From Candidatus Acetocimmeria pyornia (GTDB taxonomy: Bacteria > Bacillota > Sulfobacillia > UBA3575), in assembly GCA_004367365.1 (NCBI GenBank), contig SESX01000003.1, forward strand, positions 1-42,383: 42,383 bases of DNA, written 5' to 3'. This document shows positions 540-39,459 of this stretch, piece after piece. Below the pieces are notes generated by a model. That model was not told the origin of the DNA. It saw only the letters and a program-made list of their open reading frames with translations, and ran no database searches. Position 1 is the first letter of the stretch, and every line of letters starts with the position of its first letter. The translations under genes and the position numbers were made by a program.

Positions 540-650
540 GATAGACTGCCACCAGCCATTTCCACTTTTTCGCTGGTGCCGCCGCCTGAAGCGGCGTGGA
601 CCATTACCGCGCAAATACCATGCCTGAGTCGGTGGATGCTTTCTTCGCCG
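540..650 (-). repeat. Dispersed repeat family, copy A (partial)
   Basis: GTAATGGTCCACGCCGCTTCAGGCGGCGGCACCAGCGAAAAAGTGGAAATGG on the minus strand, similar to copies C and F. Confidence 0.6.
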
Positions 651-4020: not shown

Positions 4021-4392
4021 TCAAGACCTGTCACTTTTCAACAAACGTAGGAACTCGGCTACCGTAGCCGGTATTTGTTCCTCTGGTACTGCACGGTGCT
4101 GCACCGTCTCCCCTGCAACCACCACCCATCCTGCCGGCGGCTGGATCCCGGGGCGTGTGGCACAATCAGCCGGACACCCGCTGAGGATCAGAACCGTTAC
4201 TGCCTCCGGGTCAGCAGCCGGTACAAAGCCTATCCCGTCCCGGAACACCAGTTCCTGGACACCCTCAAGAACCCGTTTCCGGTCGATGACCGGGTTACAC
4301 CCGCCGCAGTACTTGACCCCAACCTTAAATCTGACCACCTCTCCTTTCTCGAGCCTGGCAGGCCTCCATGCTTCTCGCCGTCTCTTCTCCAC
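4021..4392 (-). CDS. Small uncharacterized protein with CGGCNP and CPADCA cysteine motifs
   Basis: 123 aa ORF; FKVGVKYCGGCNPVIDRKRVLEGVQE...LILSGCPADCA; coherent protein composition. Confidence 0.7.
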   Translation of the reverse strand: MEKRRREAWRPARLEKGEVVRFKVGVKYCGGCNPVIDRKRVLEGVQELVFRDGIGFVPAADPEAVTVLILSGCPADCATRPGIQPPAGWVVVAGETVQHRAVPEEQIPATVAEFLRLLKSDRS

Positions 4393-4394
4393 TA

Positions 4395-4640
4395 GTGCTG
4401 CACACCGCTACCGGTGGAGGCACCACGGAGAATGAAAATCAAGAACAAGCCTGTTGTTGCAGTCTACATCAGGGGTGCCAACAAACGGGCAGCCACGGGC
4501 TCCCCGAGCGGCGATGAGTAAACGAGTTCAAGAACCGCAGGCAGCGAAGACCAGCCGCAACTACCTGTCTGGGCCCGGAGGGGTGTGTGGCTGCCGCCCG
4601 GAGCCGCCGAGGTTCATTTGGTTAATTTCAACATTCCAGC
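4395..4640 (+). repeat. Dispersed repeat family, copy B
   Basis: GGCACCACGGAGAATGAAAATC...GTTGCAGTCTACATCAGGGGTGCC...TTCAAGAACCGCAGGC...GACCAGCCGCAAC...TGTGGCTGC.GCCCGGAGCCG.CGAGGTTCATT shared with copy C. Confidence 0.8.
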
Positions 4641-4920
4641 CCCGAAATCCTATCCCCCAAACCGGCTAGGTCGAGAGGCTGCCGGTACCATCCCCATCTT
4701 CTCTTGAAACCCCGCAGCCCAAAAACCCCGGATGGGCCCCGTGACAATGCAACTACCACTGTTTTCCCCTTTTGTCTCCCCTGGCAGGAATTGTTCCCCC
4801 GCTTAAAGAACTAAGTCTGGCGGTCGTCTGTTTTCTCCGCAACCATGCAGGAATCCGGCAACGGTTTCGCCCGAAAACAGAACCTACATGAAGCTAGACA
4901 GTGGTGGAGGTGGACAGAAG

Positions 4921-6087
4921 ATGTTCTTCGAAAAGGCAGACCGAATCAAGGGGTTTTCGTCTGCCGTCTTCTCCGAGATGGAGAAAGCCAAGTACGCCGC
5001 CATGGAACGCGGCATTGAAGTCATTAACCTCGGTATCGGAAGCCCGGACCTCCCGCCGGCACCACATATCAGAAAACGCCTTCAGGAGGCTGTAGCCGAT
5101 CCCAATAATTACGGCTACGCCATCCTGGGTTTTCCTGAACTGCACGAGGCCCTCGCAGACTGGTACCGAAACCGTTTTGGGGTTGAACTTGACCCCAAGA
5201 CCGAGGTACTGGACCTGATGGGGTCCCAGGACGGGCTGGCACACATCTCACTGGCAGTCATCAACCCAGGGGATACCGTCCTGGTTCCCGATCCCGGTTA
5301 CCCGATTTACAGTGCCGGACCCCTATTCGCAGGTGCCGAGCTCTACCGTTACCCCCTGCTGGAAGAAAACAACTACCTGCCGGTTCTGGAAGAATTCGAA
5401 CCGTCACTGCTCAAGCGGGCTAAAATGATCATCATCAATTACCCCAACAACCCGCTGGCGGCCACTGCTCCCCTTGAATTCTTTTCACGGCTGGTGGAGC
5501 TGGCCTACCAGTACAACTTCTTAATCTGTCACGATGTTGCTTATTGTGAACTGGCCTTTGACGGGTACCGGCCTCCAAGCCTCCTGCAGGTCGATGGGGC
5601 CAAAGAGGTTGCGGTAGAGTTTTCTTCCCTCTCCAAGACTTACAACATGGCCGGGTGCAGGCTCGGTTTCGTATCCGGCAACCCCCAGGTGATAGCCGCC
5701 CTGGCCGAGGTTAAGTCCTACCTTGACTATGGTGTCTTCAAGCCCATTCAATATGCGGGGATTACGGCACTGACCGGACCCCAAGAATACGTTCGGGAAA
5801 CCGTCCTTACCTACCAGAGAAGACGAGATGTCTTGGTAGAGGGTCTAAACTCCATCGGTTGGAAGCTAGAGAAACCCAAGGCTACCATGTTTGTCTGGGC
5901 CCCGGTTCCGGGGGAATATACCTCCTCTGACTTCGCCACCACCCTCCTCGCAAAGACGGGGGTCGTGGTCCTACCGGGCAACGGCTTCGGGGAAAACGGG
6001 GAGGGGTACGTCAGGATCGGCCTTGTCCAGGATGAAGAACAGTTGAAAGAAGCTGTCGCCCGGATCGCAGAGAGCGGTCTCTTCTGA
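4921..6087 (+). CDS. Class I/II PLP aminotransferase, LL-diaminopimelate aminotransferase-like
   Basis: INLGIGSPDLPP, NYPNNPLAATA, EFSSLSKTYNMAGCRLGFVSGN (PLP Lys); GGAGG about 10 nt upstream of ATG 4921, so the ORF start at 4888 looks overextended. Confidence 0.92.
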   Translation: MFFEKADRIKGFSSAVFSEMEKAKYAAMERGIEVINLGIGSPDLPPAPHIRKRLQEAVADPNNYGYAILGFPELHEALADWYRNRFGVELDPKTEVLDLMGSQDGLAHISLAVINPGDTVLVPDPGYPIYSAGPLFAGAELYRYPLLEENNYLPVLEEFEPSLLKRAKMIIINYPNNPLAATAPLEFFSRLVELAYQYNFLICHDVAYCELAFDGYRPPSLLQVDGAKEVAVEFSSLSKTYNMAGCRLGFVSGNPQVIAALAEVKSYLDYGVFKPIQYAGITALTGPQEYVRETVLTYQRRRDVLVEGLNSIGWKLEKPKATMFVWAPVPGEYTSSDFATTLLAKTGVVVLPGNGFGENGEGYVRIGLVQDEEQLKEAVARIAESGLF

Positions 6088-6239
6088 GGGCTCCCCCTAC
6101 GCAGACGCTTCTACGAAAATGCCATCGTCCACCTCGCCAGGGTTGCTCCTCCACTCGCCTTTTTTCTTCCTCACCCCTTCGGGGCTGCAACCGCAGCGTT
6201 TGGTTCCGGAGCAACCCGGGAGTGCAACTCACGATACTA

Positions 6240-6585
6240 CTCGCTCAAGGGGCTGCTGAATACAGCTTCGAATTTTTATGCTTCGTGGTTCCGGCACTTC
6301 TGAGGCGGCATGGAGCATCACTACGAAAATTTTCCGACGGCACCTGCCTTCCTTCGCGGCGTCACGCTCAACGTATAGTTGTATAATGAACCTCGACGGC
6401 TCCGGGCCGCAGCCACAAACTCGCGGTGGCTGCGGCTGGTCCGCCGCCTGCGGTTCTTGAACCAGCTCAGGAAGCCCGCACCCACCCGTTCGATGCCACC
6501 CCTGGTGTAGACTGCAGCAACCGGCTGGAGCCTGATTTTCACCTTCTGTGGTGCCGCCGCGCCGCATTGCGGAATGGAACACTAC
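6240..6585 (-). repeat. Dispersed repeat family, copy C (longest copy)
   Basis: Hairpin head GCGGCGCGGCGGCACCACAGAAGGTGAAAATC, body, tail ATGCCGCCTCAGAAG...GGAACCACGAAGCATAAAAATTCG. Confidence 0.85.
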
Positions 6586-6703
6586 TCAGGGTTTCACTAA
6601 GGCCGCCCTCAGATCGCAGGCCTTGCCTCCACCTGGCGGCTGCTGCCACCTTCATCGTGACCTTCACCCTCGCGGCAGATCCATGCCGGTACATAGAAAA
6701 CCC

Positions 6704-6729
6704 AACCCCGGGCCTGTGAGCCCGGGGTT
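6704..6729. terminator. GC-rich hairpin, possible bidirectional terminator
   Basis: AACCCCGGGC-CTGTGA-GCCCGGGGTT, 10-bp perfect stem with 6-nt loop; on the minus strand followed by GGGTTTTCT. Confidence 0.5.
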
Positions 6730-6769
6730 CCAGTAAAGCTTAAGACTCGACGTTTCGGTTAGGTGCAAG

Positions 6770-6815
6770 TAAGGTCTTTTCCGATGTAAGAGCCTCAAGA
6801 TTGAAAAAGACCTTA
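6770..6815. terminator. Inverted repeat downstream of the SleB-type gene
   Basis: TAAGGTCTTTT (6770-6780) and AAAAGACCTTA (6805-6815), 11-bp perfect arms, 24-nt spacer. Confidence 0.4.
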
Positions 6816-6837
6816 AGAACAAGGCTGGGGCCGGCTT

Positions 6838-7677
6838 TCACCTGGCGAAGTTGTGGTTGCCGATTTCGGCAGTTACCTTTTTCGTCCGCCAAAAACTGCT
6901 GGTTGACAGCCGTGGATTATAAAAGAAAAGGGCCCCACCTGTTGGGTCATAGCCGGAAAGGGCCGTAAGGGCAGCCTTGCGGCTGAGCTCACTGGGCTCC
7001 ACCTGAAACCGTCGGCTGTAAACCGCAAGGAACTGTCCAGGTTCTTTGATCACCGCCTCAATCGAATCGGGAAACCGCGGGTCCTCAACCCTGTTTACAA
7101 CCACCGCGCCTACGGCCACCTGTCCCTGAAACGGCTCAGACCCAGCCTCAGCATAGATGATCCTGGCCAGGAGTTCAACTTCGTCCTCATGGGCGTGCCA
7201 CCTGTCTTGCTCCCCTGCATCACTAATCCCGGCAGCAATGGAGATCGATACCGTATTGGTAACCCCTTCCCAGGCCACTTGGCCACCCAAGGCCTCGACT
7301 GCAAAACGTAGGGGAACCAAGGTTCTGCCTTCTACGACCCGGGCCGGAACATCCAGGGGCACAACCCTGCCTCCCACAAGGGCCTCCTTTTCACCCAGGC
7401 CGATGACAATCCCCTGCCGGTCACCATCACCATTGACTAAGACCCGTTTCGAACCGGTATCGTAATGAACCTCGCGTCCCAGGGCCTCGAAGAGTCCCCT
7501 TAACCCCACCAGAATCCTGCTCTCTTCCATGACCACCGGGACAGAAGGTGCCAGTGGAACATCATTGACATAGACGATTACTGGCTCCGTAGGACCTGTA
7601 GAGGCGTAAACAGGCGGGGTAAATAAGAAAACGGAAAGTAACACCGCCATTGCGCACATCCATTGCTTCCGAACCAT
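6838..7677 (-). CDS. Copper amine oxidase N-terminal (stalk) domain plus SleB-like cell wall hydrolase
   Basis: Signal peptide; LVGLRGLFEALGREVHYD...LVPLRFAVEALGGQVAWE; LLARIIYAEAGSEPFQGQVAVGAVVVNRVEDPRFPDSI...GGALFFYNP. Confidence 0.92.
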   Translation of the reverse strand: MVRKQWMCAMAVLLSVFLFTPPVYASTGPTEPVIVYVNDVPLAPSVPVVMEESRILVGLRGLFEALGREVHYDTGSKRVLVNGDGDRQGIVIGLGEKEALVGGRVVPLDVPARVVEGRTLVPLRFAVEALGGQVAWEGVTNTVSISIAAGISDAGEQDRWHAHEDEVELLARIIYAEAGSEPFQGQVAVGAVVVNRVEDPRFPDSIEAVIKEPGQFLAVYSRRFQVEPSELSRKAALTALSGYDPTGGALFFYNPRLSTSSFWRTKKVTAEIGNHNFAR

Positions 7678-8015
7678 GCCCCAACCCCCTCTGAATCGCT
7701 ACCACGAAAGGCTCCTTTTCCCGGGTACCACTTCCTTTTTTTTCGCCGTGACCTTCCGTGAACCTCCAGGAATTATCTGCCAGAGAGTAGCTGGGGTTCG
7801 CCGCGTAACCGTAAACCTGTTGGTCTTGTGACAAGGCACACAAGAAAAAAAGACTTCACCACCAGTGCAGCCTGCCATTTATCAAAAGACGTGGGGAGCC
7901 AGACCGCCCCCAGGGTTCGATTCAGCCAAAGGGTAAGGAAACAGCACCGTGCTAGGGCATAAACCCCTGAAAGGTTTAATATATTTCCAGTGACTCATGA
8001 GAATTCCAGCCTGCC

Positions 8016-8876
8016 GTGGTGATGACCTTGACCGGACATTTCCTGGTTATCAACCCCAGGTTCCCAAGAACCATCATCCTCATTATCGCCCTGGCCTTTA
8101 CCTTCTGGTGGCCCTTCCGGGCCCCGGTGACAAGATTTCTCTTTGGTGTTCCACCAGGCGTCACACTGCACGGGGAATCGGTCTCCGGACTGACCACCGT
8201 GGAGGTAGAGGAAAAGGTGCGCCAGTTGGCCGAAGAGCTAAACCAGGAAGCGAAAAACGCCAGTATTGACCGCAGCACAGGGCAGATCATTCCGGAAAAA
8301 TGGGGGGTCCAGGTTGATATCCAGGCCACTGTCAACAGGGTCATGTCCGCTGCCGAAGGAGCCCGGGTAGAACCGGTGCTGCTAGACATTGAACCAGAGT
8401 GGAAGGCTCAAGACCTGAAAGCTATCAGCACGGTGCTTGGAAGTTTCACCACCTGGATGCAGGGTTCAAGTGCCCGGCGTTACAATATTAGGCTCTCGGC
8501 ATCCTTCCTCGACCGAACCCTGGTCCTGCCGGGTGAAGAGTTTTCCTTTAACGCCCTGGCCAGTCCTTACACCAGGGAAAGGGGCTATCAAGATGCTCCC
8601 ATCATTGACGACACCGGGCGAATGTCCCCGGGGATCGGGGGTGGAATCTGTCAGGTATCCACCACTCTCTACAACGCCATCGTCGAGGCCGGCTTAAAGC
8701 TTACCGAAAGACACCGTCATACCCTGCGCATATACTATGTCACCCCTGGCAAAGATGCCGCCGTGGCTCATGATAAAGACCTGCGTTTTGTGAATAACCG
8801 GACCACCCCTGTCCTGGTACGGGTTTACGCCGATGAGAAGAAATTGACGGCGGAAATCCTGGGAACAGGGAACTAA
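8016..8876 (+). CDS. VanW family protein
   Basis: N-terminal TM helix; RLSASFLDRTLVLPGEEFSFN...GIGGGICQVSTTLYNAIVEAGL...ERHRHTLRIYYV. Confidence 0.93.
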   Translation: MVMTLTGHFLVINPRFPRTIILIIALAFTFWWPFRAPVTRFLFGVPPGVTLHGESVSGLTTVEVEEKVRQLAEELNQEAKNASIDRSTGQIIPEKWGVQVDIQATVNRVMSAAEGARVEPVLLDIEPEWKAQDLKAISTVLGSFTTWMQGSSARRYNIRLSASFLDRTLVLPGEEFSFNALASPYTRERGYQDAPIIDDTGRMSPGIGGGICQVSTTLYNAIVEAGLKLTERHRHTLRIYYVTPGKDAAVAHDKDLRFVNNRTTPVLVRVYADEKKLTAEILGTGN

Positions 8877-8934
8877 TGACCTTAACCACCGACTGCAGTC
8901 TTCAATCTCCCCCCGGTAAGGAGGTCTGGGTGAA

Positions 8935-9090
8935 TACTACGAGAATGCCCCAACAGCACCGGCCTTCCTTCGCGGCGCCACGCGCACCGGATGGTTGTAA
9001 TGAACCTCGTCGGCTGCTGGCCCCAGCCACAAACTCGCCCTCCAGGCTCAGACAGGTGGCTACAGCTGGTCCTCCCGTCGCCTGTGGCAG
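8935..9090 (-). repeat. Dispersed repeat family, copy D (body and 3' end)
   Basis: GCGAGTTTGTGGCTG...CGACGAGGTTCATTA...CGCCGCGAAGGAAGGC.GGTGC.GT.GG...TCGTAGT shared with copy C. Confidence 0.8.
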
Positions 9091-15308: not shown

Positions 15309-15422
15309 CCCTCATCTCTCAGAACCCCCTGGTTCTGCAGGAATTGGCACCTTTCCAACCGCAAAACGATTGGCGGTTGCCGGGTTTCATTGGGCCAGTC
15401 CCTCCACCTCTCTGGATAAGAG
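15309..15422 (-). promoter_or_regulatory. SAM-I (S-box) riboswitch upstream of metY-metX
   Basis: CTCTTATCCAGAGAGGTGGAGGGACTGGCCCAATGAAACCCGGCAACC...GGAAAGGTGCCAATTCCTGCAG...GAGAGATGAGG; P1 CTTATC/GATGAG. Confidence 0.97.
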
Positions 15423-29641: not shown

Positions 29642-29774
29642 TTGGCCTTCCCCCTCCTTCTGTGCCTGGCTTTCAACGAGAAACCTGACCTTCGTTTCCA
29701 GCTGTCCGGCGGCCCTGCCCGCCAGGACAACCCAATAACCACCTAAACTAGACCGAAAATACTGGTTCCACCCT

Positions 29775-29812
29775 GGATTTTCATCCTTTGGGGTGCCGCC
29801 GCGCCGCATACC
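29775..29812 (-). repeat. Dispersed repeat family, copy E (head only)
   Basis: ATGCGGCGCGGCGGCACCCCAAAGGATGAAAATCCAGG on the minus strand. Confidence 0.6.
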
Positions 29813-29905: not shown

Positions 29906-29971
29906 GTATCGCTTGCTTGGCCTTTGTGAGCGTTGACCTCCTTAATCCCCGAAGGGGTCCAACGTGCAATG

Positions 29972-30125
29972 AGAAGGGCAGGTTTCCTGGCTACCGGTTC
30001 TTACCACCCCATGCCTTCCCGCTTGCGCAGTGGCCTTGTATGAGGTAGTCCCCGGTTACAGTGGCGGGACCGCTCAGGATTTGCACCTGATTCCCTATTA
30101 TCTCCTGACGGAGCACCCATCTCAC
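29972..30125 (-). promoter_or_regulatory. Cobalamin riboswitch upstream of the cobQ operon
   Basis: Minus strand GGTGCTCC...GGGAATCAGGTGCAAATCCTGAGCGGTCCCGCCACTGTAACCGGGG...GCCACTGC...GGGAAGGC...AGCCAGGAAACCTGCC. Confidence 0.96.
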
Positions 30126-30180
30126 GGCATTATTCATATTTCACTGCTATTATAACCCAGTTAGTATCTTAAGAACAACC

Positions 30181-33164: not shown

Positions 33165-33191
33165 ACCATCATCCCCCCGCATCAACAGCAA

Positions 33192-33360
33192 AAGGCAGAA
33201 ACAGGCAGGTCTCCTGGCTTCCGGCTCCTCGTTCACCCATCCTTCCCAGGCAAGGCCCAGTGGATACCTTCGGGTTGTTACTCCCCGGTTACAGTGGCGG
33301 GACCGCTCAGGATTTACACCCGATTCCCTATTCTCCCCCAGAGGGGCACCTGCTGCCCGG
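33192..33360 (-). promoter_or_regulatory. Cobalamin riboswitch upstream of cobT
   Basis: Minus strand GGTGCCCCTCTGG...GGGAATCGGGTGTAAATCCTGAGCGGTCCCGCCACTGTAACCGGGG...AGCCAGGAGACCTGCCTG. Confidence 0.97.
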
Positions 33361-33469
33361 ATTTATTTTGTTGGCATCATTATATCAAGGAGAGGGTTGG
33401 AGGGTCAATAGGTCAAACAAGGCCAGAACCGTGGCCACCATCAGAACAGCCCCGGGAAAGGCAGAGATG

Positions 33470-33530: not shown

Positions 33531-33617
33531 GCCCGTGGGTTGGTCGAGGTAGCCGGCAGTAAGAATGGTGCCGGCGTGGATGCGACTACGGGGAGCCAAA
33601 CTGCAGGAGGGTTTGAG

Positions 33618-34808
33618 TTGTTTTCTCAAATATTCGCCGAGAGAATGAAGCACCTTGGTACAGAGACGGCCTTTGAAGTACTGGCGAAGGCCAAGGCCCT
33701 GGAACGAACCGGGAAGGATATTATCCACCTTGAAATTGGAGAACCGGATTTTGATACTCCCGGCAACATCATCGAGAGTGCCGTAACCGCCCTCAGAGAC
33801 GGTTACACCCATTACACTCCTACCCCCGGTATCCACGAACTACGAGGGGCTATCGCCGAATACGTGGCCCGCACCAGGGGAATCCCCGTCGAACCAGAAG
33901 AAGTGGTAGTCACTCCGGGCGGCAAACCGATTATGTTTTTTTCGATCCTAACCCTGGTTGATCCGGGGGACGAAGTCCTGCTCCCTGACCCCGGTTTTCC
34001 CATCTACGAATCAATGGTCCGTTTCGTAGGTGGAATCCCGGTACCCATCCCCCTGCTCGAAGAAAACGACTTTGCGCTGGATGTGGACAGGCTGCGGGCC
34101 AGGATCGGACCCAAAACCAAGATGATCATCCTCAATTCACCCCAAAACCCGACGGGAGGGGTGCTCTCAAAGACCCAACTGGAGGAAATTGCTCACCTGG
34201 TGCAGGGCAAAAACATCATCGTTCTCTCGGATGAGATCTATCATCGTATCGTGTACGAGGGAGAAGCAGCTTCTATTGCCAGCCTCCCCGGGATGAAGGA
34301 ACAAACCATTATCCTGGATGGTTTTTCGAAAACCTATGCCATGACAGGGTGGAGGTTAGGGTACGGAGTCATGCACCCGGAAATTGCTGAGCGGATTACC
34401 CGTCTCATGGTCAACTCCAATTCCTGTACAGCCGCTTTCACCCAGGTAGCCGGAATCGAAGCCCTGACCGGTCCCCAAGATGCTCCGCGGGACATGGTGG
34501 AGCAGTTTCGCACCCGGCGGGATGTGATCGTAGAGGGCCTGAACTCGATCCCCGGCATCACCTGCCGTAAACCGAGGGGTGCCTTCTACGTTTTCCCCAA
34601 CATTTCAGCCCTAGGGGTTAAGTGCGAACTACTGGCCGACTACCTGCTGAGGGAAGCATCTGTGGCCGTTTTGGCCGGCACCTCCTTCGGCCGCTACGGT
34701 GAAGGCTACCTCCGGCTGTCCTACGCCAACTCTGTAGAAAACATCGAAAAAGCCGTCGACCGAATCGCTCAAGCCCTTCAACGACTGGAGAAACACATGG
34801 CCTCCTGA
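33618..34808 (+). CDS. Class I PLP aminotransferase (aspartate aminotransferase family)
   Basis: MKHLGTETAFEVLAKAKALERTGKDIIHLEIGEPDFDTPGNI; NSPQNPTGGV; LDGFSKTYAMTGWRLGYGV; GGAGGG 6 nt upstream of TTG 33618 (ORF-track start at 33477 lies in the repeat motif). Confidence 0.92.
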   Translation: MFSQIFAERMKHLGTETAFEVLAKAKALERTGKDIIHLEIGEPDFDTPGNIIESAVTALRDGYTHYTPTPGIHELRGAIAEYVARTRGIPVEPEEVVVTPGGKPIMFFSILTLVDPGDEVLLPDPGFPIYESMVRFVGGIPVPIPLLEENDFALDVDRLRARIGPKTKMIILNSPQNPTGGVLSKTQLEEIAHLVQGKNIIVLSDEIYHRIVYEGEAASIASLPGMKEQTIILDGFSKTYAMTGWRLGYGVMHPEIAERITRLMVNSNSCTAAFTQVAGIEALTGPQDAPRDMVEQFRTRRDVIVEGLNSIPGITCRKPRGAFYVFPNISALGVKCELLADYLLREASVAVLAGTSFGRYGEGYLRLSYANSVENIEKAVDRIAQALQRLEKHMAS

Positions 34809-34913
34809 GGACGTTGAAGAGGGTTTCGCAAGACCACAAATGTTCTCTTGCCGTTTCCCATCTTCAAGAGGGGGATTTTTTTCTCTTTACCCTGCATCCC
34901 TACTGTCTTTCCC

Positions 34914-36699: not shown

Positions 36700-36775
36700 G
36701 CCAATTTTCATGCTTCGTGGTGCCGCCGCTTCAGAGGCGGCATGTAGTACTACTACCTTAAAAGGGAGGTGGGTC
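36700..36775 (-). repeat. Dispersed repeat family, copy F (hairpin spacer)
   Basis: AAGGTAGTAGTACTACATGCCGCCTCTGAAGCGGCGGCACCACGAAGCATGAAAATTGGCG on the minus strand. Confidence 0.75.
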
Positions 36776-39112: not shown

Positions 39113-39194
39113 AAGAACTTCGGAACCGGATCGGAACAGGTGCAGTGTCGCATTGCTACTGCAATTCCGAGAAGTTGACGGTTCCGAAGTTCTT
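39113..39194. repeat. 82-bp imperfect palindrome (nested inverted repeats)
   Basis: AAGAACTTCGGAACCG (39113-39128) / CGGTTCCGAAGTTCTT (39179-39194), 16-bp perfect; inside it CGGAA...TTCCG and TGCAGT...ACTGCA. Confidence 0.9.
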
Positions 39195-39416
39195 CTACTT
39201 TTTCCCCAACATTGTAGACCTAACGGCCAAGAGCGAACGACTGTCCGGCTACCTGCCGGGGGAAGCATCGGTGACCGTCCTGGCCGGCACCTCCTTCGGC
39301 CGCTACGGCGAAGGCTACCTCCGGCTGTCCTACGCCAACCGGTAGAAAACATCGAAAAGGCCTCGACCGAATCGCCCGAGCCGTGTAACCACTGGAAAAA
39401 CCAATAGCCTCCTGAG
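39190..39416 (+). pseudogene. Aminotransferase C-terminal fragment, degraded paralogue of 33618-34808
   Basis: ASVTVLAGTSFGRYGEGYLRLSYAN matches ASVAVLAGTSFGRYGEGYLRLSYAN; 1-nt deletions break the frame (AACCGGTAGAAAACATCGAAAA vs AACTCTGTAGAAAACATCGAAAA). Confidence 0.9.
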
Positions 39417-39459
39417 GGCTTCCCCGCGCCAGCACAACAGGGCTGCCTTAGCAGCCCTA

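What the first reader, a model, noticed from the sequence alone, without database searches (positions are those of the whole stretch)
4395..9090. Dispersed intergenic repeat family with a GC-rich hairpin and a codon-like small ORF
At least six related segments lie in intergenic gaps: about 540-650(-), 4395-4640(+), 6240-6585(-), 8935-9090(-), 29775-29812(-), 36700-36775(-). The unit appears to be a hairpin spacer (CATGCCGCCTCTGAAGCGGCGGCACCACGAAGCATG), then ATG/GTG-AAA-ATC starting a small Arg-rich ORF (copy C: MKIRLQPVAAVYTRGGIERVGAGFLSWFKNRRRRTSRSHREFVAAARSRRGSLYNYTLSVTPRRKAGAVGKFS), then TAG and another hairpin spacer. In the last ~15 codons, copies C and D differ mainly at third positions of that frame (GCa/GCc, GCc/GCt, GTc/GTt, GGa/GGg, TTt/TTc) and share the TAG stop, as expected from a sequence once under protein selection. 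Upstream, D has a 2-nt deletion and B is frame-disrupted, so these copies look decayed. No transposase is visible, so it could be a non-autonomous element or a relic of a multicopy small-protein gene.
Basis: partly seen in the sequence, partly recalled or inferred. Interest (0 to 1): 0.75.

Follow-up and report, generated by a model that had tools for sequence, protein, structure and literature searches.

The report
Mosaic arrays of miniature IS110 elements
The repeats are not relics of a small protein: they are tiny "passenger" jumping elements that carry only the two ends of an RNA-guided mobile element (IS110) and sit head to tail in scores of arrays across the genome, where the one intact IS110 carries a guide RNA whose target sequence is the end of its own family, which would explain why they pile up.

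Summary
The connector hairpin occurs at least 174 times in the 2.75-Mb genome (reversed control 0) and forms about 147 loci in the 1 Mb I fetched.

Each unit is: left-end hairpin (AGTGCTCCATGCCGCC-loop-GGCGGCACCACGAAGGATGAAAAT), a module (A about 230 nt, B 130-150 nt, or C 16 nt), then ATTTTCGTAG. Units sit head to tail.

One module, on contig C48, is an intact IS110-family recombinase gene (404 aa, homologous to IS621) with its bridge-RNA region. The same left-end hairpin caps IS110 elements in other genomes. The connectors are therefore IS110 right-end/left-end junctions, and A, B and C are non-autonomous IS110 derivatives. Another family's genome carries five 53-bp versions, one beside an unfilled repeat copy.

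Guide assignments were checked on relatives: donor guide equals the element's own right end in 42/56; target guide matches its left flank 6.6/8 versus 4.1 in controls. The C48 target guide, CATAGTAG, equals its own right end, and C48 sits exactly at a unit junction. Self-targeting would build the arrays.

The "small ORF" shows no protein selection. The reading "non-autonomous element" was right, "small-protein relic" wrong. Activity is untested. New variant of a known kind.

The parts
6535..6583 (-). left-end (LE) hairpin H of unit 1 of a two-unit array; preceded by TGAGTAG target-like flank
   Evidence: H profile E 8.8e-7; sequence
   Evidence: A profile E 1.3e-53; no coding selection
6312..6330 (-). 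right-end/left-end (RE-LE) junction ATTTTCGTAG-TGA-TGCTCC between unit 1 and unit 2
   Evidence: sequence; inner-junction consensus ATTTTCGTAG[TA]AG|TGCTCC from 59 junctions
6272..6317 (-). LE hairpin H of unit 2
   Evidence: H profile E 1.6e-9
6121..6270 (-). module B1 with long internal inverted repeat
   Evidence: B profile E 4e-36; covariation of the H-B fold
6108..6120 (-). right end ATTTTCGTAGAAG of the array
   Evidence: sequence; same end in 24 of 59 array right ends
4391..4439 (+). target ACTAG (4391-4395) followed by LE hairpin H
   Evidence: H profile E 4.4e-6; left-flank consensus A[CG]TAG
4441..4618 (+). module A, right end lost (decayed)
   Evidence: A profile E 1.6e-43
8937..9087 (-). 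module A lacking its LE, with right end ATTCTCGTAG at 8937-8946
   Evidence: A profile E 8.2e-36; sequence
29755..29804 (-). LE hairpin plus 16-nt module C (CCAGGGTGGAACCAGT), right end ATTTTCGGTCTAG
36704..36751 (-). LE hairpin preceded by GTAGTAG target; module unrecognisable
   Evidence: H profile E 5.3e-12
574..603 (-). decayed LE hairpin (weak)
   Evidence: H profile E 0.0082

Best explanation
The repeats are non-autonomous derivatives of an IS110-family (bridge-RNA-guided recombinase) insertion sequence. Each unit keeps only what such a recombinase needs in its donor: the left end (with a hairpin conserved across this IS110 clade) and the right end ATTTTC[GA]TAG[TA]AG. The inside is a non-coding module (A, B or C). 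SHOWN: both ends are shared with an intact IS110 in the same genome (contig C48); the connectors inside arrays are right-end/left-end junctions; the C48 element sits exactly at such a junction; only one bridge-RNA locus was found in the genome, and A and B lack it; miniature elements with the same kind of ends exist in other families, with an empty site visible in one. INFERRED: the recombinase and bridge RNA of an autonomous copy act in trans to excise units as circles and insert them at A[CG]TAG targets. Because the target guide of the bridge RNA (CATAGTAG) reads like the right end of the family, new units go in next to old ones in the same orientation, which builds head-to-tail mosaic arrays.
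For: C48 array B-ATTTTCATAGAAG-H-[bridge RNA + 404-aa IS110 Tnp]-ATTTTCATAGTAG-CGCTCCATGCAGCC. Tnp: PF01548 E 6e-39 and PF02371 E 1e-24; homologous to IS621, PDB 8wt6, E 1e-19, with D12/E58/D95/D98 aligned to the DEDD positions. Connector motif in 27 of 154 class genomes, reversed control 0, and in several of them it lies upstream of IS110 genes as their LE. LDG equals own RE 8/8 in 42/56; LTG vs own left flank 6.6/8 against 4.1 for other elements' flanks; C48 LTG-LDG match 7/8 is the highest of 56. Only C48 of 76 relatives was scored as inserted directly after an IS110-type right end (that scan missed L161, also at one). Outer left flanks of arrays: consensus A[CG]TAG. Covariance model of the bridge RNA: one strong hit in the genome, C48, E 9e-29; A and B not hit. 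Five 53-bp mini-elements in G013, all after TAG, one next to an unfilled repeat copy CACTGTAG|AACGC. Published precedent: a 22-bp donor works with bridge RNA in trans (PMC11208160); cargo between IS ends moves with Tnp and RNA in trans (PMC11187229).
Against: No mobility has been shown. The right target guide of C48 (predicting AG-TCAGCC) matches the array junction only 3/6, and right flanks of arrays show no consensus. C48's own RE differs from its donor guide at one base (CATAGTAG vs CGTAGTAG). Copies are 70-90% alike, so most amplification is old and the ancestral guide is inferred. A and B have no detectable similarity to IS110 internal sequence, so their origin is unknown. The assembly is a draft of 327 contigs, many broken at these repeats.
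Confidence: 0.85

Rival explanations
1. The repeats are an unrelated intergenic palindrome family that IS110 merely uses as a landing site, as IS1111 does with QMITE2 of Coxiella or IS621 with REP elements.
For: IS110/IS1111 elements are known to target REP or MITE repeats (PMC11208160, PMC10969869); the C48 IS110 does sit inside an array.
Against: The H hairpin is part of the IS itself: it caps IS110 left ends in unrelated contexts, for example inside an IS3-type gene in L129/L130, at a fixed distance from the bridge RNA. RE ATTTTC..AG is likewise the IS end and matches the donor guide in 42/56 elements. In G013 a 53-bp H+RE unit is itself the insert in a filled/empty comparison.
Confidence: 0.06
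2. Relic or active multicopy small-protein gene.
For: The A consensus is open from ATGAAAAT to TAG; five of 19 full-length copies are open.
Against: No codon periodicity, no excess of synonymous change; the 16-nt insertion and shortened A' copies (76-80 nt) break the frame; start and stop are IS ends present around all modules.
Confidence: 0.03
3. REP/BIME-like family mobilised by a RAYT (HUH Y1 transposase), given the GTAG next to a hairpin.
For: GTAG/CTAG precedes the hairpin; high copy number; intergenic; mosaic arrays.
Against: No Y1_Tnp (PF01797) in the genome while controls ring; the same ends belong to IS110 elements instead.
Confidence: 0.02
4. The arrays arose mainly by homologous recombination and slippage between copies rather than by guided insertion.
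For: Slippage exists: L046 has a 17-nt tandem duplication at a right end, L066 has an inversion between the arms of B, and A' copies look like internal deletions.
Against: Junctions are precise RE-LE junctions in 59 cases, many module combinations occur, C48 entered exactly at a junction, and its target guide matches that junction 7/8.
Confidence: 0.15

Closest known systems
IS110 family insertion sequences with bridge RNA (IS621, ISEc21)
   Same: DEDD recombinase (PF01548 + PF02371), noncoding LE with target- and donor-binding guides, donor RE-LE junction; PDB homolog IS621 E 1e-19.
   Different: Most copies here lack recombinase and bridge RNA; the target guide of the resident copy equals its own right end, so copies stack in arrays.
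Bacterial MITEs (e.g. MITECca01 of Cardinium from IS982; Sulfolobus SMN1)
   Same: High-copy, short, intergenic, non-coding, keep parental IS ends and depend on a parental recombinase.
   Different: IS110 has no terminal inverted repeats and makes no target duplication; units stack as ordered mosaics. My full-text searches found no description of an IS110-derived MITE.
Neisserial NIME arrays (dRS3 + RS repeats), pneumococcal BOX, enterobacterial BIMEs
   Same: Short repeats alternating with a few variable modules in intergenic arrays (from general knowledge; NIME and BOX papers were located but not read).
   Different: Here the connector is identified as an IS110 end junction with a recombinase and a guide; these families have other or unknown mobilisers.
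Integron cassette arrays
   Same: Head-to-tail units joined by one recombination site with an imperfect palindrome, served in trans by one recombinase.
   Different: Recombinase is an RNA-guided DEDD enzyme, modules carry no genes, many dispersed arrays.

Membership tests
IS110 family (autonomous copy on C48) | DEDD_Tnp_IS110 plus Transposase_20 domains | tested here: met
   PF01548 133.7 bits, PF02371 86.7 bits, both over cut-off
IS110 family (autonomous copy on C48) | LE noncoding region with guides matching target and donor | tested here: met
   LDG CGTAGTAG vs RE CATAGTAG 7/8; LTG CATAGTAG vs flank CATAGAAG 7/8; covariance model hit E 9e-29
IS110 family (autonomous copy on C48) | RNA binding and recombination activity | not testable with these tools
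   needs an experiment
IS110-derived non-autonomous element (units A, B, C) | same left and right ends as a full IS110 | tested here: met
   H and ATTTTC[GA]TAG shared with C48 and with relatives
IS110-derived non-autonomous element (units A, B, C) | no recombinase and no bridge RNA of their own | tested here: met
   modules 16-230 nt; model R1 does not hit A or B
IS110-derived non-autonomous element (units A, B, C) | clean insertion at an empty site | tested here: inconclusive
   shown for a 53-bp relative in G013 beside an unfilled repeat copy; no empty site available for G000
MITE | terminal inverted repeats and target duplication | tested here: not met
   ends TGCTCC... and ATTTTCGTAG are not inverted repeats; TAG at both ends is explained by a shared core
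REP/RAYT | Y1 transposase (PF01797) in the genome | tested here: not met
   0 matches, controls ring in 5 genomes
Rfam RNA family | match at gathering score | tested here: not met
   none over the repeats
Protein-coding small ORF | third-position excess and open frames | tested here: not met
   109/103/131; 5 of 19 open

The most novel reading that the evidence does not exclude
A bridge-RNA cassette system: one IS110 recombinase whose target guide and donor guide both read the same junction excises and reinserts non-coding cassettes A, B and C among roughly 150 or more arrays, like an integron run by a guide RNA; the folded modules A and B are kept because they do something as RNA or DNA.
Probability: 0.2. 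Interest if true: 0.85.

Novelty: new variant of a known kind. Interest (0 to 1): 0.64.

Why it matters
IS110 recombinases are the newest RNA-guided DNA-moving enzymes, and how their guides shape genomes is an open question. This gives a natural case in which a target guide equal to the element's own end coincides with tandem, modular arrays of passengers. It also suggests a minimal natural donor of about 53 bp (G013), in line with the 22-bp donor that worked in the laboratory, and shows that IS110 passengers can be found by looking for end hairpins rather than inverted repeats.

Tried and rejected
Rfam at gathering and permissive thresholds: nothing relevant. T-box resemblance of 'AGGGTGGAACC' in module C: considered, dropped because Rfam's T-box did not hit and the same edges surround every module. 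RAYT/IS605: dropped on absence of PF01797. Coding selection: rejected. Exact-pattern scans of genome contigs and viral contigs for A-end or connector: no hits. Plasmid and phage blastn: no match. A and B against IS110 loci of relatives: no similarity. bRNA model on A and B: no hit. Right-flank (RT) consensus of arrays: none. Recombinase search in G013 (mini-elements present): none found, draft genome.

Full report
WHAT IS THERE. A search of the window's own genome with 6240-6585 gave 60 matches although only 40 of 161 candidates were scored. The 21-nt connector GGCACCACGAAGGATGAAAAT has 174 matches with up to 3 mismatches (80 forward, 94 reverse) and none for the reversed pattern. I fetched about 1 Mb of contigs that carry copies and annotated 147 loci.

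ANATOMY. Each unit is H-module-RE. H is a left-end hairpin, AGTGCTCCATGCCGCC-loop-GGCGGCACCACGAAGGATGAAAAT. RE is ATTTTCGTAG followed by TAG or AAG. Modules are A (about 230 nt, with shortened forms of 76-80 nt), B (about 150 or 130 nt) and C (16-17 nt). Arrays are head to tail, for example H-A-H-B or H-A-H-C-H-B. The window holds H-A-H-B (6108-6583, minus), H-A (4391-4618), A (8937-9087), H-C (29755-29804), H (36704-36751) and a weak H at 574-603.

NOT A PROTEIN. In 48 aligned copies of the last 20 codons, changes fall 109/103/131 on codon positions 1/2/3 (p=0.15); 62 synonymous and 123 non-synonymous single changes against 52 and 129 expected; only 5 of 19 full-length copies are open. The start and stop of the 'ORF' are the inner edges of H and RE, shared by all modules.

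STRUCTURE. Hairpin H is kept by paired changes (for example nine G-C to C-G swaps at one pair; paired fraction 0.906 against a shuffled maximum of 0.886). An H-B alignment of 32 units gives a covariation score of 0.144 against 0.113 +/- 0.005 in shuffles, 0 of 500 reaching it. Shuffles ignore relatedness, so this is supportive, not proof.

WHAT IT IS. The connector motif occurs in 27 of 154 genomes of the class, control 0. In several of them it sits just upstream of an IS110-family transposase, beside the noncoding region. The window's own genome has such an element on contig C48: [B]-ATTTTCATAGAAG-H-(about 200 nt noncoding)-404-aa recombinase-ATTTTCATAGTAG-(degenerate H). The protein has both IS110 domains and aligns with IS621 of known structure. 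So H and RE are IS110 ends, and the connectors inside arrays are RE-LE junctions as in IS110 circles. Modules A, B and C are non-autonomous derivatives. A covariance model of the bridge RNA finds one strong hit in the genome, on C48 (E 9e-29; the next hit has E 0.4), and none in A or B.

GUIDES. In 56 relatives the putative donor guide equals the element's own right end at 8/8 positions in 42. In 35 the putative target guide matches the left flank at 6.6/8 on average, against 4.1 for flanks of other elements. The guide positions are therefore well assigned, although I assigned them by alignment and no RNA was measured. In C48 the donor guide is CGTAGTAG, exactly the right end of many A/B/C units. 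Its target guide CATAGTAG equals its own right end, and the match between its two guides (7/8) is the highest of the 56. C48 lies exactly at a B-RE/LE junction (CATAGAAG|CGCTCCATGCAGCC). Among 76 relatives scored, only C48 was found directly after an IS110-type right end. That scan missed L161, and two G106 elements also lie after such ends (L250, L251), so the habit is rare but not unique.

TARGETS. Outer left flanks of arrays read A[CG]TAG. Of 52 outer left ends, 11 abut the stop codon of a sense gene, which helps explain why co-directional gaps hold 50 sense and 16 antisense copies. Right flanks show no consensus, and the right target guide of C48 fits array junctions poorly (3/6).

INDEPENDENT CASE. 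Genome G013, of another family in the class, has five units of about 53 bp, (hairpin)-GATGAAAATGCATTTTCGTAGTAG, each after TAG, four of the five after ACTAG. One lies in a repeat whose neighbouring copy is unfilled: GCGTTTCACTGTAG|AACGC, against GCGTTTCACTGTAG-[53 bp]-AACGC. This is the closest thing to an empty site. No recombinase was found there, so mobility in trans or loss of the parent is inferred.

MECHANISM. Inferred: recombinase plus bridge RNA of an autonomous copy bind the RE-LE ends of passengers, free them as circles and insert them at A[CG]TAG or at right ends of older units. Published work supports the feasibility: a 22-bp donor suffices with bridge RNA in trans (PMC11208160), and cargo between IS ends moves when transposase and RNA are given in trans (PMC11187229). 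Homologous recombination must also have shaped arrays (A' deletions, the B inversion in L066, slippage in L046).

NOVELTY. IS110 elements and MITEs are known. My full-text searches of the open library found no IS110-derived miniature elements; subscription papers and preprints were not covered. The combination with self-targeting guides and mosaic arrays appears to be a new variant.

LIMITS.

Noticed in passing
L066 (contig C39), minus strand, B module: The interior of this B module is inverted between its own arms CGCCCGGGGTGCTCC / GGAGCACCCCGGGCG, as if flipped by recombination or template switching.
   Followed up: partly
G106 loci L250, L251: IS110 elements inserted directly after IS110-type right ends (ATTTTCGGGGCAG, ATTTTCAGGGCAG); their putative target guide reads GCGGGGCAG, so right-end targeting seems to have arisen more than once.
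   Followed up: partly
L161 (Neobacillus terrae): IS110 whose target guide CATGGTAG equals the right end of other Bacillaceae IS110s, and whose left flank is TTTTCATGGTAG.
   Followed up: partly
L243, L244 (G153); L246-L248 (G134); L119 (G037); L123 (G028): Further short elements with the IS110 left-end hairpin and a right-end-like TTTTC/TTTCG..AG but no recombinase gene nearby.
   Followed up: partly
L126 (contig C59): Decayed second copy of the same IS110 gene (internal stop and deletions), so more than one autonomous copy once existed.
   Followed up: no
window 34583-34810 and 39192-39417: Two segments 81-87% alike; the first is the 3' end of an aminotransferase gene (33540-34808), the second has no called gene of that kind: a duplicated gene fragment.
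   Followed up: no
window 29960-30135, 33187-33365, 15309-15422 (all minus): Two cobalamin riboswitches and one SAM riboswitch at gathering score.
   Followed up: no
contig ends in G000 (e.g. C9, C76, C255, C311): Many contigs begin or end inside these repeats, so the family probably fragments the assembly and true copy number is higher.
   Followed up: no
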